A stretch of 61,796 nucleotides of DNA from an uncultured Planctomycetota bacterium. Its GTDB lineage: Bacteria > Planctomycetota > UBA1135 > GCA-002686595. The translations under genes and the position numbers were made by a program. The DNA lies in contig CAIYPP010000058.1 in assembly GCA_903928115.1 (NCBI GenBank), positions 1 to 61,796 of the forward strand, given 5' to 3'. Position 1 is the first letter of the stretch; each line of letters opens with the position of its first letter. The notes beneath the pieces were generated by a model. That model ran no database searches and was not told the DNA's origin. It was given only the letters and a program-made list of their open reading frames with translations. Below are positions 16,007 to 31,358 of the stretch, in pieces.

Positions 16007-18292
16007 TCAGAACATCGACACCGGATCGACATCGACAGTCGGGCGAAGCTTCGCGCCGCTCTCTCCCACCGCCCGCACGGCGGCGAGCACTAGCGCGCTC
16101 TCGGCCGGATCAACGGGGAGCTTGATCAGAAGATGCCGCCTGTGACGCTCGCGAGCCATCGCGATCGGCGCAGGTGCGGGGCCCAAGACCACGGCCTGCG
16201 AGTCCACGAGGCGCTCGCGCAGCAGCTCGCCGGCCGCGTCGGACGCGTCGATCACGAGCTTCTCGCTGAGATCCTCGTAGAGCAGTCGCACGATACGTCC
16301 ATGCGGCGGATACGCGAGCTCTGCACGCAGCGCGGACTCGTGCTCAGCAAAGCCCTCGTAGTCATGCTTCGCAGCGCGGACGATCGCAGGGTGCTGCGGT
16401 GACATGGTCTGCACGACGATGCGCCCCGGCAGCGCGCCACGGCCCGCTCGTCCGGCGACTTGACTGATCAACTGGAACGTGCGTTCGGCGGCACGGAAGT
16501 CCGGCAAGTGCAGCGCGCCGTCCGCCGAGATAATGCCGACGACGGTCACCCGCGGGAAATCGAGGCCCTTCGCGATCATCTGGGTGCCGACGAGGACGTC
16601 GATCTCACCGCGACCAAAGGCCGCGAGTGTGTCTTCGTAGTCCTCGCGGCGGCGCATCGTGTCCGAGTCCATGCGCCGTACGCGCGCCTTGGGAGCAACC
16701 TTCTGTAGCTCGAGTTCGATGCGCTCCGAGCCAGCACCGACGAAACGCATCCCCGGGCGAGTGCACGTCGGGCATGCCTCGGGCGCGCGACGCTCGTCGC
16801 AGCAGCTATGGCAGACCATGCGCCCGATGCGCTGATGCCACGCGAGCGCGACGTCGCACCGCTTGCAGCGCAAGGTCTCCTTGCAACCAGGGCACCACAA
16901 GACGGGCGCAAAGCCGCGGCGATTCTGGAACAAGATCGCCTGCTCGCCGCGCTCGAGCGCCTCGGAGAGCAGGAGCAGCAAGCGCCGCGAGAACAGCTTG
17001 TGACCCTGTGCGCTCGCGGGCTCGGAGCGGATGTCGACGACTTCGATCGGCGGGAATCCGTGGCCGCTGATGCGCTGGGGCATCGAGAGGCGCGTGAGCT
17101 GGCCGCGGCGCGCCGCCTCCCAGCTCTCCAGCGAGGGCGTCGCCGAGCCGAGCACGCACACGGCGTTGTTCGCGCGCGCGCGCTCGATCGCGACGTCTCG
17201 CGCGTGGTAGCGGGGCGTCGAGCCCTGCTTGAACGACGGCTCGTGCTCCTCGTCGACCACGATCACACCGATGCGCTCCATCGGTGCAAAGAGCGCGGAG
17301 CGCGCGCCGACGACCACGCGCGCCTCGCCGCGCTGCACGCGCTGCCACATCCGTAGCCGCTGCGCATCCGTCATGCGCGAGTGCAGTACCGCGACGTTCT
17401 CGAACCGAGAGCGGAACCAGCCCACGGTCTGCGGCGTGAGGGCGATCTCGGGCACCAGCACGATGGCACCGCGTCCCGCGGCGAGAGCACGCTCGATCAG
17501 CGCGAGGTACACCTCGGTCTTGCCGCTTCCGGTGACACCCTGCAGCAAGAACGCACCGTGGCGCTCGGCGTCGAGCGACGCGACCAAGGCTGCCAGCGCC
17601 TCCTCCTGCATCGGGTGCAGCCTCTCCGGGCGCGGCCGCTGCGCGCGCGACGTCTCGAGCTCGTCGGCATCGGCCTCGATTTTTTCGAGCCGAATCCAGC
17701 CGCGTCGATGGAGCGTGCGTGCGGCCGAGTCCGAGAGGTTGAGCTTGCGGCACAAGTCGCGCAGCTCGATACGCCCGCCGACTTCGAGGATCGTGCGGAG
17801 CATGCGGTGCTGTTTGGGCTGCGTTTCTTCGAGCTCCGCGAGCTCCTTCTCGCCGATCCCCGGCGCAGGCGACGCGACAATCACTTTCGCGCTCTCCCGC
17901 TCGCGCTTCAGCGCGGCGGGCAGGATCGCGTGCAGCGCTTCGCCCCACGAACACGCATAGCGCTCGCCGATCCAACGCGTGAGTTCGAGCAGGTCTGCCC
18001 CGACCAGCGGCTCGTCGTCGAGGAGCGCGGCGATTTCGCGCACTTTCTCGAGCGCACACTCCCGCGCGATGCCCGTGACGACGCCGACCTCGCGCTCTTG
18101 CCCGAAGGGCACCGCCACACGCACGCCGGGGACGACGCGCGGAGCCAACGCCGTCGGCACGGCGTACGTGAACTGCACCGCGACGGGGCGGTTGAGCGCG
18201 ACCTCCGCGTACAGCGCCGCGCGCGGCGCGGGCACGGGTCCGACATCGAAGAGCGTCAGTTCCCGCGCGACATCCTTCGGCGCGCGTGCCAC
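16007..18292 (-). CDS. priA: Primosomal protein N' (replication restart helicase)
   Basis: Encodes 761 residues from the GTG at 18292. PriA recognises stalled forks and reloads the replicative helicase. The order is family-typical: an N-terminal DNA-binding domain with FTYAVP and a PFGQEREVGVV segment; helicase lobe 1 with Walker A GVTGSGKTEVYL and DEEHEPSFKQGSTPRYHARD; a zinc-binding insertion with eight cysteines (CPGCKETLRCKRC, CHSCC, CPTC); helicase lobe 2 with GTQMIAKGLDFPRVTVVG and QVAGRAGRG; and a C-terminal domain with AYPPHGR. It follows the MazG-like gene by 10 bases. The convergent glutaminase-family gene ends nine bases away. Confidence 0.96.
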   Translation of the reverse strand: MARAPKDVARELTLFDVGPVPAPRAALYAEVALNRPVAVQFTYAVPTALAPRVVPGVRVAVPFGQEREVGVVTGIARECALEKVREIAALLDDEPLVGADLLELTRWIGERYACSWGEALHAILPAALKRERESAKVIVASPAPGIGEKELAELEETQPKQHRMLRTILEVGGRIELRDLCRKLNLSDSAARTLHRRGWIRLEKIEADADELETSRAQRPRPERLHPMQEEALAALVASLDAERHGAFLLQGVTGSGKTEVYLALIERALAAGRGAIVLVPEIALTPQTVGWFRSRFENVAVLHSRMTDAQRLRMWQRVQRGEARVVVGARSALFAPMERIGVIVVDEEHEPSFKQGSTPRYHARDVAIERARANNAVCVLGSATPSLESWEAARRGQLTRLSMPQRISGHGFPPIEVVDIRSEPASAQGHKLFSRRLLLLLSEALERGEQAILFQNRRGFAPVLWCPGCKETLRCKRCDVALAWHQRIGRMVCHSCCDERRAPEACPTCTRPGMRFVGAGSERIELELQKVAPKARVRRMDSDTMRRREDYEDTLAAFGRGEIDVLVGTQMIAKGLDFPRVTVVGIISADGALHLPDFRAAERTFQLISQVAGRAGRGALPGRIVVQTMSPQHPAIVRAAKHDYEGFAEHESALRAELAYPPHGRIVRLLYEDLSEKLVIDASDAAGELLRERLVDSQAVVLGPAPAPIAMARERHRRHLLIKLPVDPAESALVLAAVRAVGESGAKLRPTVDVDPVSMF

Positions 18293-18302
18293 GCAAGCAC
18301 CC

Positions 18303-18587
18303 TCAAGGACAGGCGCAGGGCGCCGCCTTGCAACGCGGGCAGCCGAGCTCGTACTTCTTGCGCGCGGCGGCCTCGAGGTCGATGCCCGACATCGACGCGA
18401 GCGTCGACAGCCACGCGAACACGTCCGCGAACTCGCCCTCGAGCTCTTCCTTCTTGTTGCGCCGCAACGCGCGGGTCAGCTCGCCGACCTCTTCGCAGAA
18501 CCACATGTGCGTGCCGTGCAGGCCGCGGGCCGAGTCTCGCTGGAAATAGATGCGCTCGATCAGCGCTTGGAATTCGCGTACTTGCAT
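18303..18587 (-). CDS. MazG-like nucleotide pyrophosphohydrolase
   Basis: Encodes 94 residues. The helical MazG metal-binding pattern ExxE...ExxD is visible (CEEVGELTRAL, then EFADVFAWLSTL), so an all-alpha NTP pyrophosphatase acting on (d)NTPs is likely. It is a single short MazG module. The C-terminus carries an extra cysteine cluster, CPRCKAAPCAC, that could bind a metal and is unusual for the family. The ATG at 18587 lies three bases after the stop of the SpoIIE-type gene, and priA begins ten bases after its own stop, so all three are probably one transcript. Confidence 0.85.
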   Translation of the reverse strand: MQVREFQALIERIYFQRDSARGLHGTHMWFCEEVGELTRALRRNKKEELEGEFADVFAWLSTLASMSGIDLEAAARKKYELGCPRCKAAPCACP

Positions 18588-18590
18588 GGC

Positions 18591-20195
18591 TCAGACCCGT
18601 CGGACGGTGACGATGGAGATGTCGCGCTCGCGCGCGGAGTCGCCCGCGTGGGCGAGCAGCGCCTCGCGCAGCTTCGCGAGGAAGGCCTCGGTCGGCAAGG
18701 CGCCGAGCTTCATCACGAGCGCGTAGAGCCCCTTCTCGCCGAGCTCTTGGCCGTCCGCGTTCGCCACCGTGACCGCCCCAGAGTTCACGAGCACGAGTCG
18801 ATCGCCGCGCTCCACGGGGACCAGCGCAACCTCGAGCTTGCTGTCGAACACGGGGCCCTTGTCGAAGCCGAGCGCGATGCCCTCGGGGTGTACTACGCGC
18901 ACCTTGTGATCGGCACCGGTGAAGCGGATCAGCGGGACCTTGTGCCCGGTGCACGCGACGGAAGCCACGCCTTCCTTCGGATCCAGCGAGGCGTAGAGCG
19001 CCGTGACGGCCATGCCGCGCCGCACGTCGCGGGCGAGCGCACGATTGGCGGTGCCGAGCGTGGCTTTGAGATCGCCGCCGTCGACGAGCTTCGCACGCAG
19101 GTACGAGCGCGCCGTCGCTCCGACGAGCGCGCCGGGCAGGCCCTTGCCCGAGACCTCGCACACGAGCAGGCCGACCCCGCCCTGCGCGCCGCTCTCGATG
19201 TAATCGAGGAAATCCCCGGAAAGTCCGCTGGACGCGAGGTGCAGGTGCCCGACCTCGTAGCCCGCGACCTTGGGCGTGGACTGGGGCAAGAGCTGCTCGC
19301 GCACTTCGGCCGCAACCTGCACTTCGCGCTGGCGGACCTCGAGCTCGACCTCGTTCTCGCGCGCCTCCGCAAGGCTCTTCGTCATGCGGTCGATCGCGCG
19401 TGCGAGCGTCCCAACTTCGCCGCCAGCGTCCGCGTTGATGCGGTGGTTGAGGTCGCCTGCAGCGATGTGGCGGACATCGTCGGCGATCTTGGCAATCGGC
19501 CGCGAGACTTGGCTCGCCACCCAGACCGACACGAGCGCACCGACGAGGATGATCACGAACGTGACACCGATCACGAGCCCCAGCAAGCTGCGATCAGCGA
19601 CGTGCGCCGTGTCAGGAAAGAGCAGATACACCGGAGCCTGACCGTCGCGCGCCTGATGCTTGAACACGACTCCGCTGCGGCCGTCCGCCAGCGTCACCTC
19701 GGCCTCGATCACCGCACCGTCCGCGTGCGAAGTCGCCTGTCCCGCCTGCTTCCAAGTCTCGAGCGCCGCGAGCTCCTTGTAGCGCGCCTCGCGCTGCTCT
19801 CGCTGCGCATGCAAGGACTCCCGCAGCGCGCCCTGATAGCCCACGAAACCACGCCGCAGCGCCTCGTAGCGCGAGTCACCGCCCTCGGGATACTCCTTCG
19901 CGGTCGCGACGATGTCCTTGGCGGTCTGCTGCTCGAGCGCGAACAGGAGCTCGCGCTCCGCGAGCATGCGCTGGCGATCGACGGCGGCCTGCACGACAGG
20001 AGACGTGAGCTCGGTCGCTTCGACCATCGTCGCCTGCTGCACGTTGTCGCTGACCTGCCGAGCGGTCTGATACAGCAGGAAACCCGCGGCCGAGGAGACG
20101 AGGGCCAGCGCCACCGTCATCGACAGCGTGAAGCGCATCCAGATTGGCAGACCGCCGCCCGTGCGCTCCTCGCTGCTGCGCTTGCGTGTGGTCAT
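18591..20195 (-). CDS. Membrane HAMP-SpoIIE (PP2C-type) phosphatase, metal site partly degenerate
   Basis: Encodes 534 residues. A first transmembrane helix (about 22-43), an extracytoplasmic helical sensor region (about 45-205), a second helix (about 208-230), HAMP (about 231-285), a short coiled coil, and a SpoIIE-type PP2C domain (about 310-533). This is the RsbU-like architecture that dephosphorylates anti-anti-sigma factors, but no anti-sigma partner lies nearby. The first metal motif is intact (SGDFLDY). The DVSGKG motif reads EVSGKG, the usual TDG loop reads VNSGAV, and the terminal DD reads RD. Activity may be reduced or lost. It begins one base after pgpA. Confidence 0.85.
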   Translation of the reverse strand: MTTRKRSSEERTGGGLPIWMRFTLSMTVALALVSSAAGFLLYQTARQVSDNVQQATMVEATELTSPVVQAAVDRQRMLAERELLFALEQQTAKDIVATAKEYPEGGDSRYEALRRGFVGYQGALRESLHAQREQREARYKELAALETWKQAGQATSHADGAVIEAEVTLADGRSGVVFKHQARDGQAPVYLLFPDTAHVADRSLLGLVIGVTFVIILVGALVSVWVASQVSRPIAKIADDVRHIAAGDLNHRINADAGGEVGTLARAIDRMTKSLAEARENEVELEVRQREVQVAAEVREQLLPQSTPKVAGYEVGHLHLASSGLSGDFLDYIESGAQGGVGLLVCEVSGKGLPGALVGATARSYLRAKLVDGGDLKATLGTANRALARDVRRGMAVTALYASLDPKEGVASVACTGHKVPLIRFTGADHKVRVVHPEGIALGFDKGPVFDSKLEVALVPVERGDRLVLVNSGAVTVANADGQELGEKGLYALVMKLGALPTEAFLAKLREALLAHAGDSARERDISIVTVRRV

Positions 20196-20196
20196 C

Positions 20197-20685
20197 TCAG
20201 CTCGCTCCGTAGGTCCAAGGGAGGTTCGGCAGGAGGAGCCGCGCGGGCAACATCACGAGCACGAAGCCGTACACGCCGGCCACCACGTCGTCGAGCAGGA
20301 TGCCGTCGCCCCCACCGATCGCCTCCATGCGTCGCGCGAGCTTCGGCTTGAACACGTCGAAGAAGCGGAACACGAAGAACGCGACAGCGAGCGCGAGGTA
20401 GCTCGGCCCGCCCGTCCACGCGATCGTGATCAGGTAGCCGATGACTTCGTCGAGCACGAAGATCCCAGGGTCTTTCTCGCCGGCGTACTGCTCGGACCAG
20501 TCGCCGAGGGAGCGGCCGACGAGGTAGAGCAGCGCCGCCGCGGCGAGGCTGAGCCAGAGGTAGTGCTCCTGTCCGCGCAGCGCCCACGCGATGGCGACGC
20601 CGCCGAGCGTGCCGACGGTTCCCGGCGCGAAGGGCGAGCAGCCGAGGTAGCCGCAGGAAACAATCCCGAGCTTGAGCCAATTCAT
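20197..20685 (-). CDS. pgpA: Phosphatidylglycerophosphatase A
   Basis: Encodes 162 residues. PgpA dephosphorylates phosphatidylglycerol phosphate to phosphatidylglycerol in the inner membrane. Family features: the N-terminal GYLGCSPFAPGTVGTLGG, the acidic site EKDPGIFVLDEVIGY, FRFFDVFKP, and the C-terminal DGILLDDVVAGVYG, with about four hydrophobic segments. The ATG at 20685 overlaps the pgsA stop by four bases (ATGA). Adjacent pgsA makes its substrate, so the two consecutive steps are coupled. Confidence 0.95.
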   Translation of the reverse strand: MNWLKLGIVSCGYLGCSPFAPGTVGTLGGVAIAWALRGQEHYLWLSLAAAALLYLVGRSLGDWSEQYAGEKDPGIFVLDEVIGYLITIAWTGGPSYLALAVAFFVFRFFDVFKPKLARRMEAIGGGDGILLDDVVAGVYGFVLVMLPARLLLPNLPWTYGAS

Positions 20686-21302
20686 CGCGCGCCCTCCGAG
20701 AGGAACTTGCGGGCCTTGAAGACGTACGAGAGCCCCGACCCCACCGAAGTGATCAGGGTGAGCCAGACCATCGCGTGCGCGGACCATGCCCAGCGCTCGC
20801 GAGCGATGTCGGAGAGCTCGAAGGCCTGCATCCCCAGCGGAATGCCGACGGCCCAGCACTGCACGAGCATCTTCACCTTGCCGAACCAGTCGGCGGGAAA
20901 CGCGTGGCCGAGGCTCTCGACGTAGCCGCGAATGCCCGTGACGAGAAACTCGCGCGCGAGGATGACGACCACGACCCACGCCGGAAAGAACTCGCGCGAC
21001 CACGGCAGCACCGCGAGGAAGATCATCGTGCCCATCACGAGCACCTTGTCGACGAACGGATCCGCGATGCGTCCGAAGGCCGTGATGTGATTCCCGCGCC
21101 GCGCGAGCCAGCCGTCGAGGATGTCGGACAGCGCGACGGCCACGAACAGCCACAGACAGGCATGCATCTCTCCGCGTCGTGACGCGAGCTCTTCAGCCCC
21201 TACGTCGCCGACATGTGCGAGCAGGGCAAAGAGGGCAACGGCGCCGAGAAAGCGCACCGCCGTGATGCGGTTGGGCCAGTGGGCGAAGACGCCGGAGGCC
21301 AT
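20682..21302 (-). CDS. pgsA: CDP-diacylglycerol--glycerol-3-phosphate 3-phosphatidyltransferase
   Basis: Encodes 206 residues. It forms phosphatidylglycerol phosphate from CDP-diacylglycerol and glycerol 3-phosphate in the membrane. The CDP-alcohol phosphotransferase motif is complete across SDILDGWLARRG and FGRIADPFVDK (D..DG..AR....G...D...D). N-terminal PNRITAVRF and five or six hydrophobic segments match the family. The ATG at 21302 shares one base with the rimO stop (TGATG), and the stop overlaps pgpA. Confidence 0.95.
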   Translation of the reverse strand: MASGVFAHWPNRITAVRFLGAVALFALLAHVGDVGAEELASRRGEMHACLWLFVAVALSDILDGWLARRGNHITAFGRIADPFVDKVLVMGTMIFLAVLPWSREFFPAWVVVVILAREFLVTGIRGYVESLGHAFPADWFGKVKMLVQCWAVGIPLGMQAFELSDIARERWAWSAHAMVWLTLITSVGSGLSYVFKARKFLSEGAR

Positions 21303-22645
21303 CAGCCCCGCACCGCCTTGGCGATCAGATTCGACTCGGCATCGAGCCCTTCGACGCGCACGCGCAGCCGCTTGCCGACCGCGAGCTTGCGCCCGGTGAC
21401 GAGCGTCACGAGGTCGACCTCGGGCGCGTCCATGTCGCTGCGCGCGACGTTCGGAACCCCGCGCGCGGGCGAGCTCTCGTCGACGAGCACATCGATCTCG
21501 CGCCCGACCAGCGCCTCCTGCTCCGCGCGCAGAACCTCGTCCCGCGCTGCGAGCACCGCGCGATGGCGCGCGCGCATCTCTTTCTCGCTCACGCGACCGG
21601 GGAGGTCGAAGCCCGACGTCCCCTCTTCCGGCGAGTACGTGAACGCGCCGAGCCGCGCGAGCCGGTACTCGCGGATGAACGCGCACAGTTCTTCGACATC
21701 CGCCTCGGTCTCACCGGGGAAACCGACGAGCACCGTCGTGCGCAGCGTGATGCCGGGCACCTCGCTGCGCAGTCGGTCGAAGAGCTTGCGAACCTGATCG
21801 CCCGAGCCCGCACGGCGCATCGCGCGCAGCATCGGCGTCGCGATGTGCTGCACCGGGATGTCGAGGTAGCGCGCGACGCGTGGGTGGTTCGCGAGCAGCT
21901 CGGTGAGCCCCCACGGAAAGCGGTTGGGGTACGCGTACATCACGCGCACCTTGTGGTCGCCTTCGAGATCGGCGAGCGCACGCACGAGCGCGTCGAGCTC
22001 GAGCCCCATGTCGCGCCCCCACGCCGTCGAGTCCTCGGCGACGATCACGAGCTCCTTCACGCCTGCGCTGACGAGCTCGCGCGCCTCGCTGACCACGTCG
22101 TCGGGCCGCTTCGAGCGGTGCGGGCCACGGATCGCCGGAATCGCGCAGAACGAACACGTGTGGTCGCAGCCGTGGCTGATGCGCAGGTACGCGTAGGAGC
22201 CGGGCGTCGAGAGCAAGCGCGCGTCGTCGCGCGTCGCCTCGCGCAGCCCGCCGTTGTCGAGGTAGCGCGGCGCCGAGCGACCCTGCGACAGATCCGAGAT
22301 CGCCTTGGCGAGCGCCTTGCCGTCGGAGATCTCCGCGAAGATGTCGACGAGCGGGAAGCGTTTCTGCAAGTCACGTTGGAAGCGCTGGACGAGGCAGCCC
22401 GCGACCACCACCCGCGCCAGCTCGCCGCGCTTCTTCTTCGCACACAGGCGCCGGATCTGGCTCTCGGACTCCTCGCGCGCCGGCCCGATGAAGGAGCAGG
22501 TGTTGAGCACGACCGTGTCGGCCTGCTCGGGATCACCGGACACGACGAGGCCTTCGTCGGCGAGGCGCCCGAGGATCAGCTCGGAGTCGATCTGGTTGCG
22601 GGCGCACCCGAGGTGCACCAAGGAGACGACGGCGGGGTTGGGCAC
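21302..22645 (-). CDS. rimO: Ribosomal protein S12 methylthiotransferase
   Basis: Encodes 447 residues from the GTG at 22645. RimO is a radical-SAM enzyme that adds a methylthio group to an aspartate of ribosomal protein S12. The N-terminal UPF0004 domain carries its cluster cysteines (HLGCARNQIDSE, LNTCSFIGPAREES, VAGCLVQRF). The radical-SAM motif is CDHTCSFCAIP, and a C-terminal TRAM domain is present. A longer frame from a GTG at 22711 is open but includes TATCCT at 22705-22700, which reads better as a -10 box for this gene. The rimO-pgsA neighbourhood after ftsK is common in bacteria. Confidence 0.93.
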   Translation of the reverse strand: MPNPAVVSLVHLGCARNQIDSELILGRLADEGLVVSGDPEQADTVVLNTCSFIGPAREESESQIRRLCAKKKRGELARVVVAGCLVQRFQRDLQKRFPLVDIFAEISDGKALAKAISDLSQGRSAPRYLDNGGLREATRDDARLLSTPGSYAYLRISHGCDHTCSFCAIPAIRGPHRSKRPDDVVSEARELVSAGVKELVIVAEDSTAWGRDMGLELDALVRALADLEGDHKVRVMYAYPNRFPWGLTELLANHPRVARYLDIPVQHIATPMLRAMRRAGSGDQVRKLFDRLRSEVPGITLRTTVLVGFPGETEADVEELCAFIREYRLARLGAFTYSPEEGTSGFDLPGRVSEKEMRARHRAVLAARDEVLRAEQEALVGREIDVLVDESSPARGVPNVARSDMDAPEVDLVTLVTGRKLAVGKRLRVRVEGLDAESNLIAKAVRG

Positions 22646-22699
22646 TGTGGAGCTCGCTGCGATCCCGCGGCCTCTTTTGTGGGCAGCGCGCGGGTGCGC

Positions 22700-22705
22700 A
22701 GGATA
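22700..22705 (-). promoter_or_regulatory. Possible -10 element for the rimO transcript
   Basis: TATCCT on the minus strand matches five of six bases of TATAAT and lies about 54 bases before the GTG at 22645. It follows the hairpin that ends the ftsK-like gene. No convincing -35 box is visible. Confidence 0.3.
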
Positions 22706-22752
22706 CCCCACCCCGCCGCAGCCCCGAAACGAAGCGGATCCTCAGAGCGCAC

Positions 22753-22785
22753 GCGGGGCGCCCACCTCGTCGGTGGACGCCCCGC
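22753..22785 (-). terminator. Strong hairpin after the ftsK-like gene, no U tract
   Basis: Arms at 22753-22766 and 22772-22785 pair over 14 bases with one G-U wobble and a five-base loop. It lies 27 bases beyond the stop of the ftsK-like gene. The A run on the plus strand at 22794-22799 is on the wrong side to give a U tract for this transcript, so it acts either without a U tract or as an mRNA 3'-end stabiliser. Confidence 0.55.
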
Positions 22786-22811
22786 GCAGGGCTAAAAAAG
22801 CGAGTTCGACC

Positions 22812-25031
22812 TCACTCGGCGACGCCGACCTTGTCCTGCCACTCGTCCTGACTCATCAGGATGTCGCGGCGCTGACCGCCGAGGTAGGGACCGATCAGGC
22901 CGACGTCCTGCAGCTGGTCGAGCACCGCCGTGGCGACCTTGAAGTCCATGTTGAACTCGCGCTGGAGCATCGAGACCGCGACGCGGTTGCGCTCGAGGAA
23001 CAGGCAGCCCGCGCGGTAGGTCGGCTCGGGCAGGAAGACGCGCGAAACCGAGCGCGACGGGACCGGAGTCAGCACGACGTCCGAGATGGCGTGCGGGGCC
23101 TCGGGCTCCTCGACCGCCTCGACGCGGCGCGAAGGCTTCGGCGTCGGGGCCACGCTGGCCGTCGCGGGCACGGAGCGCGGCTCGGCGCCGCGCGAGCCCT
23201 TGGACTTGGCGGCCGGGCGCACGGGCTCCGGCGCGATGTCGGCGAACAGCGACGGCTGGACCGGCTCCTCGAGGGTGGCGGGGATGACCGGCGCCGGAGC
23301 GACCGCGGGCGCCTCCTCGATGGCCTCCGAGAGGACGACCTCCGAGGCGACAACCTCCGAGACGATGGCTTCCGCAACGGCAACTTCCGGCTCGGCGACG
23401 AGCAAGGCGACCGCAGAGGAGAGTTCCGCCGAGGCTTCGCCCACCGTGGAGGCCGGAGCCTCTGCGCTGTAGGCCTCGCTCGTCATGGCCACCGGAGCTT
23501 CCGGCACGGCCTCCACTTCGGGCAGCGCCGGGACCTCGGGAATCGCCGCAATTTCCGGCTGGACCGGAACTTCCGCGACAGGCTCGAGCTCGGGCACCGC
23601 GGCGATCTCCGGCTGGACCGGCAGCTCGGGCTGAGCGGTCAACTCGGGTTCGGCTGGGTGCTCGGCGACCGTCGGCGGAATCGCGACCTCGGGTTCCTCG
23701 GGGAGCGCCATCTGCGAGACCACCACGGTCTCGACCTCGGCCTGCTCGACGACGAGCACGGTCGGCTCGCTCACCACCTCGGCGATCGCCTCGGCCTCGG
23801 GTGCGCGGACGGCCATCGGCGCAGACGCCACGGCCTCGAGCGGCTGCACACTCTCGACGTCCGCATCGTCTTCGAGATCGACACCGGCGAGGTCGAGCTC
23901 GGGAGCGACCTCCGACGGATTCTCCGCAGGGGCAGCGGGCTTGCGCAGCGACTCGACGAGCGACATCGGGGTGCCGTAGGCATCGACCGGCTCGTCGAAC
24001 ATCTCCGGCTGCTCCCAGCTCGGCGCGACCGGCGCCGTCGAGTACGGGCGGGCGGGAGCTTCTTGGACCGGGAGCTCGGCCGTGAAGGCTGCGTCGACCT
24101 CGGACGGGTCGAGCGCCTCGTCGCTCAGGCTTCCTGCACCGCCGAGGCCGACGGAACCCGCACCGAGAGCGGAAGCGGCGAAGGGACCAGCGGAGGGAGC
24201 TTCGAGTGGGTGCTCGGGCGCGGCGGCTGACGCAGCCACATCGCGAGCGGCTCCTGCTCCGGCGGGGTGAGCAGCGCCGTCGGAGTGGTGCAGGTCGACC
24301 ACGTCATGCGCACTTCGGAACGATCGGCCATAGGGGGACTCCAGCGGCTTGGCACCCGGGGGGATGCCGCCCGTGAGACGGACGTCGGTGGGATAGGGGG
24401 CGGTCGACGCGGGGGGCGCCGACACGTTGGAAGTGTTCGCCTTCGAGCTCGGCGCCGCGGTGACGGGCGCAGTGCGCGGCAGCAGGGCCTCGGCCTCGGA
24501 GGTCGTGACCGCTCCGGACTCCGTAGTTCCCGCGAGAGCGGAGGCGAGAGAACCGGATTTTTCGCTCTCCGCGTGGCGCTCGGCAGGGCGCAGCCACGCG
24601 AACCACGCGGGCAGGAGCACGAGCGCGATGCCGGTCGGCACCGCGACCCACACGGTGAAGCGCGCACGGACCGCGGAGCCGATCGTCGCGCCGAAGCTGC
24701 CGGCGAGCGAGGCGTCGATCGTGCCGACGAGGATCGACAGCATGAAGGTCGTGATCAGGATGCCGACGAGGTGGCGCACCACGGAGCCGTCGAAGCCCCG
24801 CAGCCAGATCCGCATGCCGACCAGAGCCACGCCCAGGGCCGCGAACAGGCCGCTCACCGGCCCAAGAAGGTGCGCGAACCGCATCGCGAGCCCGACGGGC
24901 TCTCCCTCGGCGTCGTAGACGGGCTGGCGGGTCGCCATGACCACCGAGACGGCGCCGAAGACGCCGATCACGATGCCGAGGATGCCGAGCGCGTCGCGCC
25001 CGATGCTGCGTCGATTGTTGTTCTCACTCAT
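22812..25031 (-). CDS. FtsK-like membrane protein lacking the ATPase motor
   Basis: Encodes 739 residues. Four N-terminal transmembrane helices (about 14-33, 55-77, 87-106, 125-147) resemble the FtsK 4TM domain. Residues 150-660 are a low-complexity linker rich in Ala, Pro, Glu and Val, with a repeated VQPEIAA(V/I)PE unit. The last about 68 residues match the FtsK gamma winged helix (VAVSMLQREFNMDFKVATAVL, then GLIGPYLGGQRRDILMS), which in FtsK reads KOPS sequences and contacts XerD. No Walker A or B motif exists anywhere in it. It directly follows ftsK (101-base gap, same strand), so it is probably a paralogue or partner that binds DNA at the membrane without translocating it. Function unproven. 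Confidence 0.8.
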   Translation of the reverse strand: MSENNNRRSIGRDALGILGIVIGVFGAVSVVMATRQPVYDAEGEPVGLAMRFAHLLGPVSGLFAALGVALVGMRIWLRGFDGSVVRHLVGILITTFMLSILVGTIDASLAGSFGATIGSAVRARFTVWVAVPTGIALVLLPAWFAWLRPAERHAESEKSGSLASALAGTTESGAVTTSEAEALLPRTAPVTAAPSSKANTSNVSAPPASTAPYPTDVRLTGGIPPGAKPLESPYGRSFRSAHDVVDLHHSDGAAHPAGAGAARDVAASAAAPEHPLEAPSAGPFAASALGAGSVGLGGAGSLSDEALDPSEVDAAFTAELPVQEAPARPYSTAPVAPSWEQPEMFDEPVDAYGTPMSLVESLRKPAAPAENPSEVAPELDLAGVDLEDDADVESVQPLEAVASAPMAVRAPEAEAIAEVVSEPTVLVVEQAEVETVVVSQMALPEEPEVAIPPTVAEHPAEPELTAQPELPVQPEIAAVPELEPVAEVPVQPEIAAIPEVPALPEVEAVPEAPVAMTSEAYSAEAPASTVGEASAELSSAVALLVAEPEVAVAEAIVSEVVASEVVLSEAIEEAPAVAPAPVIPATLEEPVQPSLFADIAPEPVRPAAKSKGSRGAEPRSVPATASVAPTPKPSRRVEAVEEPEAPHAISDVVLTPVPSRSVSRVFLPEPTYRAGCLFLERNRVAVSMLQREFNMDFKVATAVLDQLQDVGLIGPYLGGQRRDILMSQDEWQDKVGVAE

Positions 25032-25132
25032 CGCCGATGTCCTGACTCAACGGTGCGGTTCCTAGGGTGTTCGGTGCCCGGAAGCGTCGCGAGACCGCGA
25101 GGGTCGCCAACTTCCGGTGCGGGTTCAAGCTC

Positions 25133-28000
25133 TCAGGGCTCGTTGGAGTCGCCGAGCGACTCGGGGTCCTTGCCGTGGAGCTGCTCCCACTGGTCGAGGG
25201 TCATGAGCACTTCGCGGGCCTTGCTGCCCTTGTGATCGCTGCAGATTCCGGCCTCGCTCATCATGTCGAGCAGGCGCGAGGCACGCGTGTAGCCGATGCC
25301 GAAGGCGCGCTGGAGCATGCTCGCCGAGCCGCGGCGGCTCTTCAGCACCTGACGCACGGCCTTGTCCCACATCGGGTCGGAGAGCGCGTCCTCGAAGCCG
25401 CCGCCATCGTCGCCCCCACCCTCGACGTCGCCGCCTTCCGCATCGTCCCCCTCGGCCGGCAGCGCGCCCGGAGGCAGCGTTCCGACGGAGCCCGACGAGA
25501 GCTGCACGAGCTCCTGCGAGAAGCTCTGGACCGAGTCCTTGCACACGAAGTCCACGATCCCCTGCAGCTCGCCGTCCTCGACGAATGCGCCTTGCACGCG
25601 CTTGAGACTCGCTGCGCCCGGCGGGGTGTAGAGCATGTCGCCGTTGCCGAGCAGCTTCTCGGCGCCTTGGTTGTCGAGGATGACGCGGCTGTCGACGCCG
25701 CTGTTGACCTTGAACGCGATGCGGCAGGGCAGGTTGCCCTTCATGACGCCCGTGATGACGTCGGTCGACGGGCGCTGCGTCGCGAGGATCAGGTGGATGC
25801 CGACCGCGCGCGACTTCTGCGCGAGGCGCATGACCGCCTGCTCGGCCTCCTTCTTGGAGACCATCATCAGGTCGGCGAACTCGTCGATCACGACGACGAT
25901 GTAGTGGACCTTGCGCGGCGTGCGCTCCTCGTTCCACTCGTCGCCCATGCGCTGACGGAGCTCGTCCTCCGTGAGCGCGTTGTAGCCCTTGATGTTCTTG
26001 ACCTTGGCGTTCCTGAAGAGCTCGTAGCGCGACTCCATCTTCTCGACGATCCAGTTGAGGACCGCCGTCGCGCGCCGCATGTCCGTCACCGTCGGCGCCA
26101 TCAGGTGCGGGATGTTCGAGAACATGTCGAGCTCGACCTGCTTGGGGTCGATCAGGATCAGCTTCACTTCCTGCGGCGAACGCGTGAGCAGGAAGCTCGC
26201 GAGGATCGTGTTGACGCACACCGACTTGCCCGAGCCCGTGGTGCCGGCGACGAGCAGGTGCGGCATCTTCGCGAGGTCCTCGACCACCGCCGTGCCCTCG
26301 GTGTCGACGCCGAGGAACAGCGGTAGGCCGACGTTCTTGATGTCGTAGGCCTCTTCCTTCACGACCGCCGAGAGGCGCACCATGCGGCGCGCGGGGCTCG
26401 GCACTTCGACGCCGACCACCGACTTGCCCGGGATCGGCGCTTGGATGCGGACCGAGGTGGCCTTGAGCGCGCCGGCGATCTCCTGCTGCAGGCCGGTGAT
26501 CTTGTTCATGCGCGTGCCGGACGCGACTTCGAGGTAGTACAGGATCACGCTCGGACCGACCTTGGCGTCGACCACGACCGCCTCGACCTTGTACGAGCGC
26601 AGCACGGCCTCGAGCGCGCGGGCCTGATCTTGGATGAAGTCCCCGCTCGTCGGCCCCGTCGCCTCCGAGACCTTGAGCAGCGACACCGGCGGATAGGTCC
26701 AGTTGTCGGGGCCGAGCGTCGGCAGCTCGAACATGAGCTTGGACTGCACCTCGGTCTTCTGGGGCTTCGAGCGCTCGGCCAGCTTCTCGGCGAAACGGCG
26801 GCGCTTCTCCGCGGCTTCCTCCTCATCGAAGCTCGACGAGCCGCGCACCAGCTCGTCGTCCGGCGAGGGCAGCTCGAAGTCCTGCTCGGGCCCTGCGCGC
26901 CCGACGTCTCCGTCGTCGCTGTCGCCGACACGCTCTTCGAGCGGCTTGGCGTTCTCGCCGCCCGCGGCCGAGATCGCAGGCTCCGTGGGACGAGCGCTCG
27001 CAGCGACCGGCGTGAGCACGTGCACGCCGACGTCGTCGTCATCGTCGATCAGGTTGTCTTCGTCGAGCGGATGCTGGCGACGCGTGCGCGCAGGCTTCGC
27101 GGGCGCGCTCGCGACGGCCGCAGCGTTCGCCGCGTTCGCGCCGTTGTTCCCCGCTTCTGCCGCGACGAGCTTTTCGGCTGTCGCGCCGATGTCGTTGCCG
27201 CGCAAGAAGTCCCACAGCCCGAGCACCATGCGCCCGGTCCACAGCGACACGGAGCGCACGAGCGACTCGCCGCGCTCTTCGCGCCGCTTGCGCGCCCACT
27301 CTCCGAACGCCGCGAGCGCCGGATAGAACGCCATCTCGGTCGCGAGCATGAACGACACGACCGCGAGCACGGGCAAGAGGATCCACAGGCCGCCGTAGCC
27401 GAACTTCGCGACGAGCACGGGCGTGAGCCGGAACGCGAGCCAGCCGCCGGGTCCGTAGGGCGAGCGCGCGGTCGGCGCCATCGCGCCCTCGGGATCGACG
27501 GCGAGCTGCACGATGCACGCGATCGAGAGCACGAAGCACAGACCCGCGACGAGGCGCAGCGAGGCGAGCTTCACTTCCTTGCGCGCCACGAGCACCACGC
27601 CCCACGCGCAGCCGAGCACGCACAGGAACGCACCGGCGTTGCCCGCCGCGGCGAACGCGCCCTTGGCGTAGTAGTAGCCGACGAGTCCGCCCCAGTTGTA
27701 GCCCTGCGCCTGCGGATCGCTCGGCGGCGCATAGAAGCTCACCATCGAGACCGCGAGCCACAAAGACAGCGCGATCAAGAGGAGTCCCTTGATCTCTTGG
27801 ATGTGCGCGGCGGTCTTGCGCTCCTCCGCGGGCGTGAGCTCGCGCTCGTCCTTGCCCTTGCGCTTCTTGGCCCCCGCGCCGTCCTTGGCCTCGCTCTCCG
27901 CCGGCGCACTCTCGTCCGCGCCGAACAGTCCGCGGGCCCACGCGCTCGCGCGCGCAAACGCTCCGCCCTCCACCGACTTCGCAGAATCTCTCCGCGCCAC
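25133..28000 (-). CDS. ftsK: DNA translocase FtsK/SpoIIIE
   Basis: Encodes 955 residues. FtsK pumps chromosomal DNA at division and promotes dimer resolution by XerCD. The N-terminal domain has four or five transmembrane helices between about residues 60 and 240. A charged linker follows (about 260-450), with an Asp-rich patch. The RecA-like motor has Walker A GTTGSGKS at residues 586-593, LILIDPKQVELDMF, Walker B VVVIDEFADLMM, and ATQRPSTDVITG. The gamma winged helix lies near 875-945 (SASMLQRAFGIGYTRASRLLD). I prefer the GTG at 28000, preceded by AGGGG, over a TTG 18 bases upstream. The gene lies 60 bases after coaB. Confidence 0.95.
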   Translation of the reverse strand: MARRDSAKSVEGGAFARASAWARGLFGADESAPAESEAKDGAGAKKRKGKDERELTPAEERKTAAHIQEIKGLLLIALSLWLAVSMVSFYAPPSDPQAQGYNWGGLVGYYYAKGAFAAAGNAGAFLCVLGCAWGVVLVARKEVKLASLRLVAGLCFVLSIACIVQLAVDPEGAMAPTARSPYGPGGWLAFRLTPVLVAKFGYGGLWILLPVLAVVSFMLATEMAFYPALAAFGEWARKRREERGESLVRSVSLWTGRMVLGLWDFLRGNDIGATAEKLVAAEAGNNGANAANAAAVASAPAKPARTRRQHPLDEDNLIDDDDDVGVHVLTPVAASARPTEPAISAAGGENAKPLEERVGDSDDGDVGRAGPEQDFELPSPDDELVRGSSSFDEEEAAEKRRRFAEKLAERSKPQKTEVQSKLMFELPTLGPDNWTYPPVSLLKVSEATGPTSGDFIQDQARALEAVLRSYKVEAVVVDAKVGPSVILYYLEVASGTRMNKITGLQQEIAGALKATSVRIQAPIPGKSVVGVEVPSPARRMVRLSAVVKEEAYDIKNVGLPLFLGVDTEGTAVVEDLAKMPHLLVAGTTGSGKSVCVNTILASFLLTRSPQEVKLILIDPKQVELDMFSNIPHLMAPTVTDMRRATAVLNWIVEKMESRYELFRNAKVKNIKGYNALTEDELRQRMGDEWNEERTPRKVHYIVVVIDEFADLMMVSKKEAEQAVMRLAQKSRAVGIHLILATQRPSTDVITGVMKGNLPCRIAFKVNSGVDSRVILDNQGAEKLLGNGDMLYTPPGAASLKRVQGAFVEDGELQGIVDFVCKDSVQSFSQELVQLSSGSVGTLPPGALPAEGDDAEGGDVEGGGDDGGGFEDALSDPMWDKAVRQVLKSRRGSASMLQRAFGIGYTRASRLLDMMSEAGICSDHKGSKAREVLMTLDQWEQLHGKDPESLGDSNEP

Positions 28001-28060
28001 CCTGCCAACCCCTCGCAAGTGCCGAGCGGACGAGAGGGTCGCGCGCAGGATTGCGCGTTC

Positions 28061-28714
28061 CTAAGCGCGCGGGACCCGCCGCGGATCGACGAGGTCGACC
28101 AGCGAGTGAGCCACGGCGCGCTTCGCGCGGCGCTCGAGGCGCCGCACGGACCCGTCCACGGAGAGGATCGTCACGGTCGCGCGCTCGCTATTCAAGACCG
28201 TAGCGTCGTTCAGCACGACGAAGTCGGCGTTCTTGGCGCGCAGCTTCGCGCGCGCTCGGCGCAGGCCGGAGCCCGTCTCCAGCGCGAACGCGACCACCTT
28301 GCGAGCCCCCTTCGAGCGCGCGACGGTCGCGACGAGGTCGGGGTTGCGCACCAGCTCGATCGAGGCGCGCGCGCTCCCGCCGTCCTTGGCTCGCCACTTG
28401 CCCGCGCGTCGGCGCGCCGGACGCCAATCGGCGACCGCGGCCGCCATGAAGAGTGCGTCGGCGCGGCCAAAGGCGGCGCGCAGCGCCGCGAGCATCTCGC
28501 GGGCGCTCTCGACGTCGACCCGCGTCACTCCGGCCGGAGTCGCGAGCCCCACCGGACCCGCGATCAGGGTCACCGCCATCCCCCGCCGAGCCGCCTCGGC
28601 CGCGATCGCAAAGCCCATGCGGCCGCTCGAGGCGTTCGAGAGGTAGCGCACGGGGTCGAGCCACTCGCGGGTGGGCCCCGCAGTGACGACGACGTGGAAG
28701 CGGGCGCGCTTCAT
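28061..28714 (-). CDS. coaB: Phosphopantothenate--cysteine ligase (CoaB), stand-alone
   Basis: Encodes 217 residues. CoaB joins 4'-phosphopantothenate and cysteine in coenzyme A synthesis. Motifs include VVTAGPTREWLDPVRYLSN, SSGRMGFAIAAEAARRG, FMAAAVADWRP, LVRNPDLVATV, and a late Lys/Asn-rich AKNADFVVLNDA. In most bacteria CoaB is fused behind CoaC as one CoaBC protein; here it is a separate gene that starts at an ATG overlapping the coaC stop (ATGA), so stoichiometry is kept by coupling. Confidence 0.93.
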   Translation of the reverse strand: MKRARFHVVVTAGPTREWLDPVRYLSNASSGRMGFAIAAEAARRGMAVTLIAGPVGLATPAGVTRVDVESAREMLAALRAAFGRADALFMAAAVADWRPARRRAGKWRAKDGGSARASIELVRNPDLVATVARSKGARKVVAFALETGSGLRRARAKLRAKNADFVVLNDATVLNSERATVTILSVDGSVRRLERRAKRAVAHSLVDLVDPRRVPRA

Positions 28715-29256
28715 CGCCCCGCGAGGGCTTCGGCGACCGCGCGGACCAGCTCTTGGGGCTCGGGGAGCCGCCCCTTGCCGTCGACGCCGCAGGCCATGTG
28801 GCCACTGCCGGGCTCGATCACACGCCAGCCGTCGCCGCGCAGGGTGGCGAGGTTCCGCGCGATCGGCGGCGAGGCCAGCATGTGCGGGTTCATCGCCGGA
28901 GCGATCAGCCGGGGACGCCCCGCGGGGAGTGCGAGCGCGACGGTGCTCGCAAGGTCGTCGGCAAGCCCGAGAGCGAGCCGGGAGAGCAACCCCGCGCTCG
29001 CCGGAGCGACGAGCAGGAGCTCGGCCCAAGTCGCGAGCTCGATGTGGTCCATCGCGCCGCGGCGCTCGGGGCCGTACTCGTCGACGGCGGCGGGCTGTCC
29101 CGTGACCGCCTCGAAGAGCTGGGGGCTCACGAGCCGCGCGGCCCGCGGCGTCAGCACCGCGCGAACCTCGTGGCCGGACTGCGCGAGCTTGCTGGCCAGA
29201 TCGCAGGCCTTGTAGAGCGCCACCGAAGCTCCCGAGCACAGGACGATGTGGGCCAT
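28711..29256 (-). CDS. coaC: Phosphopantothenoylcysteine decarboxylase (CoaC), stand-alone
   Basis: Encodes 181 residues of the flavin-dependent decarboxylase that makes 4'-phosphopantetheine in coenzyme A synthesis. The HFCD flavoprotein features are present: N-terminal IVLCSGASVALYKACDLAS, the catalytic-His segment AMDHIELATWAELLLVAPASA, PAMNPHMLASPP, and the substrate-clamp cysteine in GSGHMACGVDGKGRLPEP. Length matches the isolated domain. It is coupled to coaB by a four-base overlap and begins 39 bases after gmk; no rpoZ lies in that gap, where Firmicutes place it. Confidence 0.93.
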   Translation of the reverse strand: MAHIVLCSGASVALYKACDLASKLAQSGHEVRAVLTPRAARLVSPQLFEAVTGQPAAVDEYGPERRGAMDHIELATWAELLLVAPASAGLLSRLALGLADDLASTVALALPAGRPRLIAPAMNPHMLASPPIARNLATLRGDGWRVIEPGSGHMACGVDGKGRLPEPQELVRAVAEALAGR

Positions 29257-29295
29257 GGTCTCTCCGCCTTGTTTGGAGGGTCGCGCGGGCGATGC

Positions 29296-29868
29296 TCAGT
29301 CGAGGCCGATCAACGAGCGGATCTGCTGCAGGGCGCGATCGAGGTCCTCGTTGACCACGACGTGGTCGTACTTCACGCGCTCGCGGTACTCGTCCTCGGC
29401 CTTCTTGAGGCGCCGCTCGACCACCTCGGGCGCGTCGGTGCCGCGGCCGACGAGGCGGCGGCGCAGGGTCTCGAAGTCCGGCGGGGCGACGAACACGTAG
29501 AGGCCGGGCTCGCCGAGCGCCTTGAGCTGGTTCGCGCCCTGCACGTCGATCTCGAGCAGGAACACGTCGCCGCGGGCGAGCGCATCCTCCATCGGCTTGC
29601 GCAGCGTGCCGTAGAGGTTGCCGTGGACCTCGGCGTGCTCGATGAACGCGCCCTCGCGGATCAGCTGGCGGAACTGCTCCGGGGTGATGAAGTGGTAGTC
29701 GCGGCCGTCGATCTCGCCCGTGCGCGGCTTGCGCGTCGTGGCGGAGACCGAGAAGTGCACGCGCGGATCTTCGAGCAAGCGGCGGCACAGGGTGCTCTTT
29801 CCGGCGCCCGAGGGGCCGCTCATCACCACCATCTGGCCCTTGCGCGGCCGGGATTCGCGGTTCGCCAC
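29296..29868 (-). CDS. gmk: Guanylate kinase
   Basis: Encodes 190 residues and phosphorylates GMP to GDP. The P-loop GPSGAGKS lies at residues 18-25, with SATTRKPRTGEIDGRDYHF for GMP binding, YGTLRKPMEDAL and EIDVQGANQLK following. The GTG start at 29868 has GGAG eight bases upstream, inside the end of yicC. The Met at codon 13 is the alternative. The yicC-gmk pairing is conserved in many bacteria. Confidence 0.96.
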   Translation of the reverse strand: MANRESRPRKGQMVVMSGPSGAGKSTLCRRLLEDPRVHFSVSATTRKPRTGEIDGRDYHFITPEQFRQLIREGAFIEHAEVHGNLYGTLRKPMEDALARGDVFLLEIDVQGANQLKALGEPGLYVFVAPPDFETLRRRLVGRGTDAPEVVERRLKKAEDEYRERVKYDHVVVNEDLDRALQQIRSLIGLD

Positions 29869-29873
29869 GCTCG

Positions 29874-30749
29874 CTACTCCACGTTCTGCACCTGCTCGCG
29901 CAGGCGCTCGATCTCGCTCTTCAGCTCGACCACCGCGTGCGCGACCTCGGCGTCGGAGCACTTGGAGCCGATCGTGTTCGCCTCGCGCAGGAACTCCTGC
30001 ACGAGGAAGTCGAGCTGACGCCCCACGGGCGCCTTCTTCGCGCACAGCGCACCGAGCTGACCCAAGTGGCTGTCGAGCCGCGTGAGTTCCTCGGTGACGT
30101 CGAGGCGGTCGGCGATCAACGCGATCTCGCGCGCGAGGTCGGTCGGAGCGAGATTGCTTCCCGGCCCGAGCAGCTCGGCGACGCGCTTGTGCAGGTTCTC
30201 TTGATGCGTGCGGACCACCGTCGGCATGCGCGTGCGAATGCGTCCGACGATGGCAGCGATGGACGCGCCGCGTGCCGCGAGGTCCTTCGCGAGCGCCGCG
30301 CCCTCGCGCTCGCGCATCTCCGCGAGCGAATCGAGCGCCGCGTCGACGACCGCGAGCAGCGCCGCGCGCGCGTCCGCGACGGCCTTCGAGTCCGGCGCAC
30401 TGCGGAATACGCCCGGCAGACGCGCGATGTCGTCGAGCGTCACCGGCGACGCGAGCTTCAACTCTTGCTTGAGACGCTCGAGCAGCTGCAGGTAGCGCTG
30501 GGCCGTCGCGACGTCGAGTTCGAGCGGCGCGAGCGCCGCGGCCGAGTCGAGCGAGACGTTCAGGTTCACCGCGCCGCGCTCGAGCCGCTCGCGCACGCGC
30601 ACCTCGACCTCTGCCTCGAGTGCCGAGAGCTCATCGGGCAGCCGCAGCTTGAGCTGCAGGAACTTGTGGTTCACCGCGCGCACCTCCGCGCGCAGCGCCA
30701 GCCCCTTCTCGCTCCGACTCGCGGAGCCGAAGCCGGTCATCGAGCGCAT
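29874..30749 (-). CDS. yicC: YicC family endoribonuclease
   Basis: Encodes 291 residues. It begins with the family hallmark MRSMTGFGSA and ends with the conserved C-terminal block FLVQEFLREANTIGSKCSD and VVELKSEIERLREQVQNVE. The YicC N-terminal domain and DUF1732 C-terminal region are both full length. E. coli YicC acts as an endoribonuclease on small RNA. The gene sits five bases after pyrE and five bases before gmk in one transcript. Confidence 0.95.
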   Translation of the reverse strand: MRSMTGFGSASRSEKGLALRAEVRAVNHKFLQLKLRLPDELSALEAEVEVRVRERLERGAVNLNVSLDSAAALAPLELDVATAQRYLQLLERLKQELKLASPVTLDDIARLPGVFRSAPDSKAVADARAALLAVVDAALDSLAEMREREGAALAKDLAARGASIAAIVGRIRTRMPTVVRTHQENLHKRVAELLGPGSNLAPTDLAREIALIADRLDVTEELTRLDSHLGQLGALCAKKAPVGRQLDFLVQEFLREANTIGSKCSDAEVAHAVVELKSEIERLREQVQNVE

Positions 30750-30754
30750 TCGCG

Positions 30755-31354
30755 CTAGCTCGACTTCAGCGCGCCGGGGCGGCTGCCGGGCTTGATCGCA
30801 GGGCCGTGCGTCTTCGCGGCGCACAGCGGGCACTGCTCGGGCAGCCACGACTGCACGTCGACCTGCGCGAGACAGGTGAAGGGCAGCCCGTCCTGCTCGA
30901 ACGGGTTCGCCTGACCCGAGCGGTTGATGATCGACGCGACGCCGACGGGGATCGCCCCGTAGCTGCGGACGACCTCGAACACTTCGCGGCAGCTACCGCC
31001 CGTGGTGAGCACGTCCTCGACCACGAGCACGCGCTGGCCCGCCTCGAGGTGGAAGCCGCGGCGCAGCGCGAACTTCTCGTTGACGCGCTCGGTGAAGTAG
31101 GAGCACAGGCCGAGCGCGCGCGCGACCTCGTGGGCCCATGTCACGGCGCCCATCGCGGGGCCGACCACGATGTCCGGCGTCACCTCCAGCTTGGCGGCGA
31201 CCGCCTGCGCGAGCTGCTCCGCCTTGCGGGGATCCGCGAGCAGGAGCGCGCACTGGAAGTAGCGGTTGGAGTGGCGGCCCGACGAGAGCTGGAAGTGGCC
31301 TTCCAGCATCGCGTTCGTGCGCCGGAACAGGTCGAGGACTTGTTCCTGATTCAT
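30755..31354 (-). CDS. pyrE: Orotate phosphoribosyltransferase
   Basis: Encodes 199 residues. PyrE makes OMP from orotate and PRPP. The N-terminal GHFQLSSGRHSNRYFQCA, VVGPAMGAVTWAHEVARALG and the PRPP loop VVVEDVLTTGGSCREV are present. The C-terminal about 25 residues include CPLCAAK, a CxxC extension seen in some thermophile-type OPRTases. The ATG at 31354 lies four bases after secG. Confidence 0.95.
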   Translation of the reverse strand: MNQEQVLDLFRRTNAMLEGHFQLSSGRHSNRYFQCALLLADPRKAEQLAQAVAAKLEVTPDIVVGPAMGAVTWAHEVARALGLCSYFTERVNEKFALRRGFHLEAGQRVLVVEDVLTTGGSCREVFEVVRSYGAIPVGVASIINRSGQANPFEQDGLPFTCLAQVDVQSWLPEQCPLCAAKTHGPAIKPGSRPGALKSS

Positions 31355-31358
31355 GGCG

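What the first reader, a model, noticed from the sequence alone, without database searches (positions are those of the whole stretch)
22812..25031. Motor-less FtsK relative beside a full ftsK
Seen: four N-terminal transmembrane helices and a C-terminal block that aligns with the FtsK gamma winged helix, joined by a linker of about 500 low-complexity residues; no Walker A or B. Known: FtsK gamma recognises KOPS sites and activates XerD; the motor usually lies between. Inferred: a membrane tether that binds the same DNA sites or partners without pumping, possibly a regulator or anchor of FtsK. Planctomycetota generally lack FtsZ, so an unusual FtsK partner there would be of interest.
Basis: partly seen in the sequence, partly recalled or inferred. 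Interest (0 to 1): 0.7.

Follow-up and report, generated by a model that had tools for sequence, protein, structure and literature searches.

The report
Motorless FtsK twin in FtsZ-less bacteria
Beside the gene for the DNA pump FtsK, many planctomycetes (no FtsZ division gene was found in those checked) carry a second FtsK-like gene with a predicted membrane anchor and FtsK's DNA-reading type of head but no motor; the head has usually lost two arginines that FtsK keeps there, so the protein likely serves as a scaffold or partner of FtsK rather than a pump.

Summary
ORF 22812-25031(-) has four predicted membrane helices, a long acidic linker and a C-terminal FtsK gamma winged helix, and no motor. 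It lies directly downstream of a complete ftsK. The same motorless protein ("M") was seen in 17 planctomycete families, 10 of them outside this class. In 61 of 62 loci holding both genes it follows ftsK closely on the same strand; in three other genomes the two lie apart. In the least diverged copies the membrane part passes Pfam's FtsK_4TM cut-off, so M is FtsK with the motor missing. FtsZ was not found in any M-bearing genome checked.

Reading of the same DNA sites is not supported: FtsK keeps both recognition-helix arginines (E. coli R1297, R1300) in 75 of 76 proteins, M in 5 of 67. The Xer route is weak too, because XerD here mostly lacks the glutamate that gamma contacts in E. coli. Best reading: an old FtsK paralogue, predicted KOPS-blind, that likely co-assembles with FtsK as a membrane scaffold. 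The partner is inferred, not shown. No description was found in the literature library searched.

The parts
22812..25031 (-). motorless FtsK paralogue ('M'), 739 aa
24591..25004 (-). FtsK-like 4TM membrane region, residues 10-147
   Evidence: AF2 helices; profile comparison to FtsK 4TM, probability 96.4, reversed controls under 2; Pfam FtsK_4TM over cut-off in less diverged orthologues though not in this protein itself
23049..24590 (-). long acidic linker, residues 148-661; net charge -59 counted over residues 161-665
24480..24515 (-). conserved juxtamembrane motif GVSxAEAxALLP-like, residues 173-184
24348..24404 (-). conserved linker motif SPYPxDVRxxGxIPxGARPL-like, residues 210-228
23943..24023 (-). 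conserved linker motif WEQxxLFxEPVDAYGTPLSLVExLR-like, residues 337-363, a partly ordered island
22821..23039 (-). FtsK gamma winged helix, residues 665-737
   Evidence: Pfam; AF2; PDB matches
22902..22946 (-). former DNA-recognition helix, residues 696-710; V699 and A702 stand where FtsK has Arg (E. coli R1297, R1300)
25133..28018 (-). complete ftsK (4TM, alpha, motor, gamma), 961 aa
22801..22818 (-). terminator-like hairpin just after M; none found between ftsK and M on this strand
   Evidence: consensus scan only
21302..22711 (-). rimO-like gene, conserved downstream neighbour (start codon uncertain)

Best explanation
This gene encodes an FtsK paralogue with a predicted 4TM membrane anchor and a gamma winged helix but no motor, and it likely works next to FtsK as a membrane scaffold whose gamma head would no longer read KOPS DNA. 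Shown: domain make-up, absence of a motor, position behind ftsK, conservation inside and outside this class, absence of the recognition-helix arginines, no FtsZ match in the M-bearing genomes checked. Inferred: an old tandem duplication of ftsK lost the motor; M is made together with FtsK (candidate start codons often overlap the ftsK stop); its FtsKN-like base probably joins or flanks FtsK's membrane hexamers; the flexible acidic arm with short conserved motifs would dock other division or segregation proteins; and the changed gamma would bind a protein (FtsK, or something at the terminus complex) rather than KOPS. This would let FtsZ-less cells separate the septum-scaffold role of FtsK from its pumping role.
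For: Same-strand pair, M just downstream, in 61 of 62 loci holding both genes; order yicC-gmk-coaBC-ftsK-M-rimO-pgsA shared, in whole or part, with families outside this class. A candidate ATG overlapping the ftsK stop by 8 nt in 13 of the 63 pairs listed (two of the 63 are the same place, one is 6.3 kb apart). FtsK_4TM Pfam hit above cut-off in 3 of 9 M proteins of other families scanned. Both Arg1297 and Arg1300: FtsK 75 of 76, M 5 of 67. FtsK-invariant wing Lys1318 kept in 4 of 25 and Lys/Arg1315 in 0 of 25 M of this family. Gamma core net charge mean -2.8 in 28 M against +0.8 in 39 FtsK. Conserved linker motifs. PF00091 absent in 69 of 70 genomes checked, the exception having one gamma copy, and absent in the own genome. 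E. coli FtsKN hexamerises without the motor (PMC3870252, abstract) and FtsK builds the divisome of FtsZ-less Chlamydia (PMC11975371, abstract).
Against: No partner was tested; mixed hexamers are inferred. Five of 67 M proteins, in f4, f28 and f46, keep both arginines and may still read DNA. M is not always linked to ftsK: in f8 (G043, about 200 kb apart; G047, different contigs) and in G008 (different contigs, neither gene at a contig end) they lie apart, in G112 about 6.3 kb; several other genomes have the two copies on different contigs, unresolved. Family f5 (17 of 17 genomes) shows only one gamma copy, so M is dispensable there. The YGTP motif of this family's linker was found in no M of other families, and the other motifs only as scattered single matches, so docking partners are not universal. 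The window's own 4TM does not hit Pfam FtsK_4TM.
Confidence: 0.5

Rival explanations
1. M is a motor-independent XerD activator: gamma on a membrane leash that likely switches on Xer recombination without pumping.
For: M keeps Q1288 in 60 of 67 and R/K1289 in 64 of 67, the pair that contacts XerD in E. coli with R1289 most important (PMC5052618 Table 1 and section 5). KOPS-blind FtsK still activates Xer (PMC2680272 passages), and gamma fused to a Xer recombinase works without the motor (PMC5052618 section 5). Two XerC/D-type recombinases are present in the genome.
Against: XerD-like proteins carry Arg at the Glu184 position in 15 of 18 readable loci (17 of this family, one of f2; 12 of 30 loci not readable by the pattern) and Glu183 in 9 of 18. 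M also lost G1294, another contact, in 55 of 67. The Gln-Arg pair may be kept for the fold.
Confidence: 0.17
2. M is a chromosome tether: its gamma binds DNA with a new or relaxed specificity and would hold DNA at the membrane.
For: The fold is that of DNA-binding winged helices; R1320 is invariant in M of this family; some M outside this class keep R1300 (11 of 21).
Against: Recognition-helix surface positions vary freely and are often acidic in this family, the core is net negative on average, and the arm is strongly acidic.
Confidence: 0.15
3. M is a subunit-dose regulator: it enters FtsK membrane hexamers and would lower the number of working motors.
For: Shared 4TM ancestry, frequent candidate start-stop overlap, FtsKN hexamers form without the motor (PMC3870252, abstract).
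Against: It does not explain the conserved gamma or the linker motifs. Mixing of the two proteins is untested.
Confidence: 0.13
4. M is a decaying ftsK duplicate without function.
For: The motor is gone; the linker is poorly conserved; two M frames over the cut-off hold a stop (G101 and G058) and one is broken up (G020).
Against: Open frames of at least 300 aa in the 67 proteins counted, invariant gamma residues across 73 sequences, the same gene slot in families inside and outside this class.
Confidence: 0.02

Closest known systems
FtsK/SpoIIIE DNA translocases
   Same: 4TM membrane region, flexible linker, C-terminal gamma winged helix; the neighbouring gene is a full member
   Different: no alpha domain and no motor; linker about twice as long (medians in this family 428 against 192.5 aa); gamma lost the recognition-helix arginines
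E. coli FtsK N-terminal domain and linker (division part of FtsK)
   Same: membrane base plus flexible arm without the motor
   Different: a separate gene, ends in gamma, lives beside a complete FtsK and, as far as checked, without FtsZ
SftA of Bacillus subtilis
   Same: a second FtsK-type protein beside the membrane-bound one (PMC5357621 passages)
   Different: SftA has the motor and lacks the membrane part; M is the reverse
engineered FtsK[blind] (R1300A, E1303A, E1306A)
   Same: recognition helix altered at R1300 (PMC2680272 passages); 1306 is Gln in 24 of 25 M of this family
   Different: engineered and motor-bearing; M is natural and motorless, and keeps Asp at 1303 in this family

Membership tests
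FtsK/SpoIIIE translocase | motor domain with Walker A | tested here: not met
   no motor family in Pfam; Walker A in 3 of 67 M proteins, two of them chance in the wing
FtsK/SpoIIIE translocase | FtsK_4TM membrane region | tested here: met
   profile comparison 96.4 for this family and 99.6 for other M, reversed and PgsA controls under 2; Pfam above cut-off in 3 of 9 M proteins of other families scanned; not detected by Pfam in the window protein itself
FtsK gamma domain | Pfam FtsK_gamma above cut-off and winged-helix fold | tested here: met
KOPS-reading FtsK gamma | recognition-helix Arg1297 and Arg1300 | tested here: not met
   Val and Ala in the window protein; both Arg in 0 of 25 M of this family, 32 of 32 FtsK. 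Role of R1300 from PMC2680272 passages; DNA contact of R1297 is recalled
XerD-activating gamma | Gln1288-Arg1289 on gamma matched by Glu184 on XerD | tested here: inconclusive
   gamma side kept; XerD side is Arg in 15 of 18 readable loci of 30
XerD-activating gamma | activation of recombination at dif | not testable with these tools
   needs a recombination assay

The most novel reading that the evidence does not exclude
M is an old division protein of FtsZ-less planctomycetes: a motorless FtsK that forms mixed membrane complexes with FtsK and serves as its septal scaffold, with gamma converted from a DNA reader to a protein-docking head.
Probability: 0.3. Interest if true: 0.88.

Novelty: new variant of a known kind. 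Interest (0 to 1): 0.7.

Why it matters
How planctomycetes divide without FtsZ is open, and ftsK is the one essential dcw gene in Planctopirus limnophila (PMC10632474 and PMC12283558 passages). A second, motorless FtsK kept in the same gene slot in families inside and outside this class points to a specific, testable component of that machinery. It would also be a natural separation of FtsK's membrane/scaffold role from its pumping role, and a natural gamma predicted to be KOPS-blind. Database names mislead: where a source names these proteins it is mostly 'hypothetical protein', sometimes 'DNA translocase FtsK'.

Tried and rejected
Same-site DNA binding: rejected for this family on the recognition-helix counts. 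Plain Xer activation: demoted after reading XerD of the relatives. Separate recent duplications in each family: rejected by AU test for f28 (p 0.001) and f44 (p 0.007), not rejected for f1 (0.096), f13 (0.125) and f45 (0.072); one M clade not rejected (p 0.29) but only 77 columns, and for that tree I chose 54 rows and left out several long-branch rows. The fuller tree of 112 rows needs 6 changes of the M label and warns of long branches meeting. Single origin therefore rests mainly on synteny. Pseudogene: rejected. Split ftsK gene: rejected, the neighbour ftsK is complete.

Controls and slips: the rsbU control gave a one-column artefact and is not used. The line 'M f1 30' mixed in f10 and f13 rows through a name filter; one search recounts it. 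Loci L034-L036 duplicate L041, L038 and L040 and were left out of counts; L101 duplicates L073. M fragments cut at contig ends (L041, L064, L065, L067, L070, L071) and the two tiny gamma ORFs of L079 are not among the 67. Two gamma copies in a genome were taken as M only where the locus was read. One search (82 proteins) returned 75 with the motor domain and 7 with gamma alone, and does not settle whether M exists outside Planctomycetota; neither does, where those of the 120 listed hits (of 166) that name an organism are planctomycetes. Second gamma copies of six outside-class genomes (G158, G164, G177, G195, G199, G266) were not fetched. Rfam found nothing at gathering scores in 18000-31500. 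The NCBIfam scan gave no meaningful hit for M.

Papers: PMC5052618 sections 4, 5, 20 and passages; PMC2680272, PMC5147048, PMC12283558, PMC10632474 and PMC5357621 passages; PMC3870252 and PMC11975371 abstract and outline. No description of a motorless FtsK gamma paralogue showed in the listings of searches of the held library, or in the passages read; most subscription papers are not in it.

Full report

Where M comes from. Compared as profiles, the membrane region of M matches that of FtsK from the same loci (probability 96.4 for this family, 99.6 for M of other families), while reversed profiles and a PgsA control stay under 2. In three of nine M proteins of other families scanned, Pfam FtsK_4TM passes its cut-off (48.9, 32.7 and 26.7 against 23.1). 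M is therefore FtsK_4TM plus linker plus FtsK_gamma, with alpha and motor missing. Gamma trees put FtsK and M mostly apart: 2 label changes among 54 chosen rows against a shuffled mean of 18, 6 for M among 112 rows against 37.5. One M clade is not rejected (p-AU 0.29), and recent duplication within family is rejected for f28 and f44 but not for f1, f13 or f45. With 77 columns this alone is weak.

How widely it is kept. Of 61 genomes (own included) searched with the protein, 55 match (FtsK's own gamma accounts for some of these). In the class scan (completeness 85 or more) 108 of 110 genomes have an FtsK_gamma match; by my tally of its rows 88 of the 93 genomes outside f5 have two copies and 0 of 17 in f5 do. 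In the phylum scan 240 of 244 genomes match; of 204 outside this class, 28 have two or more (my tally). I fetched 22 of those 28: 21 have M downstream of ftsK, one (L079) has two tiny gamma-like ORFs instead. In all, M was seen in 17 families: f1-f4, f6-f8 and ten outside the class. Among 62 loci that hold both genes, 61 have M on the same strand directly downstream of ftsK, overlapping it or within 700 bases, the exception being L112 at about 6.3 kb. Genomes with the two genes in separate places (G008, G043, G047) cannot enter that denominator. A candidate ATG overlapping the ftsK stop by 8 nt occurs in 13 of 63 listed pairs. In the window the gap is 101 bases, with a terminator-like hairpin just after M and none between the genes.

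The gene slot. yicC-gmk-coaBC-ftsK-M-rimO-pgsA-rsbU is shared, in whole or part, by this class and by f13, f27, f28, f34, f44, f45 and f46. In the one f5 locus read, the order is coaBC-ftsK-rimO with M absent. In f8 and in G008 M stays with rimO-pgsA while ftsK lies elsewhere. The simplest history is one old M with vertical descent, local breaks and loss.

What changed in gamma. Numbering follows E. coli through the solved chain 2j5p and PMC5052618 Table 1. In FtsK, Arg1297 and Arg1300 are both present in 32 of 32 (f1), 22 of 22 (f2-f8) and 21 of 22 (outside the class); in M in 0 of 25, 1 of 21 and 4 of 21. R1300A impairs KOPS recognition (PMC2680272 passages); the DNA contact of R1297 is recalled. 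Position 1294 changes from Gly to Asp or Glu in 24 of 25 M of this family, wing Lys1318 is kept in 4 of 25 and Lys/Arg1315 is replaced by Leu, Met or Val in 24 of 25, whereas the wing motif GPYxGG and R1320 are close to invariant. Mean gamma core charge is -2.8 in 28 M and +0.8 in 39 FtsK. This pattern suggests that specific KOPS reading was given up under continued selection; that the new surface binds protein is inferred.

The Xer question. The Gln1288-Arg1289 pair, central to the E. coli gamma-XerD contact (PMC5052618 sections 4, 5, 20), is mostly kept by M, which at first suggested Xer activation. But XerD of the window's genome has Arg at position 184 and Glu at 183, and among 30 loci (own included) the pattern read 18, 17 of them f1: Arg184 in 15, Glu183 in 9. 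FtsK of the same lineage keeps the pair too, so its retention may reflect the fold or another partner. I keep Xer activation as a rival at 0.17.

The arm. In this family the linker is 278-749 aa (median 428, 25 proteins) with median net charge -98, against 192.5 aa and -36 in 30 FtsK. It is not featureless: 73 sequences share motifs around residues 175-183, 212-226, 337-363 and 654-656, one of them partly ordered in the model. In M of other families a pattern search found no YGTP motif and only scattered single matches to the others.

Cell biology. No tubulin/FtsZ match in the own genome or in 69 of 70 planctomycete genomes checked; the one exception, G222, has a single gamma copy. FtsKN of E. 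coli hexamerises without its motor (PMC3870252, abstract), FtsK organises the divisome of FtsZ-less Chlamydia (PMC11975371, abstract), and ftsK is essential in Planctopirus limnophila (PMC10632474 passages). Against this background the most likely role of M is a co-assembled, motorless scaffold of the FtsK site. Partner, localisation and stoichiometry are untested.

Novelty. No paper describing such a protein showed in the searches of the held library. The domains are known; the arrangement, its breadth of conservation and the natural loss of recognition-helix arginines appear new. Whether M exists outside Planctomycetota is not settled.

Noticed in passing
L079:4682-5458: In family f17 ftsK is followed by two tiny gamma-like ORFs (80 and 140 aa) without membrane helices, instead of M.
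   Followed up: partly
P0029: A 472-aa protein with a methyltransferase-like domain and a C-terminal FtsK_gamma close to that of M.
   Followed up: partly
L098:5516-7780: The M linker in one f44 locus has a weak, below-cut-off match to the histone H1-like HC2 family, unlike the acidic arms elsewhere.
   Followed up: no
L121-L142: XerD-like proteins of this planctomycete family mostly carry Arg where E. coli XerD has Glu184 (15 of 17 f1 loci readable), so the FtsK-XerD contact itself may be rebuilt here.
   Followed up: partly
G222:C32:116539-116874: A tubulin/FtsZ-family match in a planctomycete genome (37 bits, cut-off 33), the only one among 70 checked.
   Followed up: no
L075: Family f5 (17 of 17 genomes with one gamma copy); in the one locus read ftsK is directly followed by rimO, as if M had been cleanly deleted.
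   Followed up: partly
PMC12283558, Figure 2 legend (passage): The legend labels PF17854 as the FtsK gamma domain and PF09397 as a linker, whereas Pfam calls them FtsK_alpha and FtsK_gamma; its statement that P. limnophila FtsK lacks gamma may rest on this mix-up.
   Followed up: no
window:22305-24230: A 641-aa open frame on the plus strand overlaps the M gene; a mechanical product of GC-rich coding sequence, not taken as a gene.
   Followed up: no
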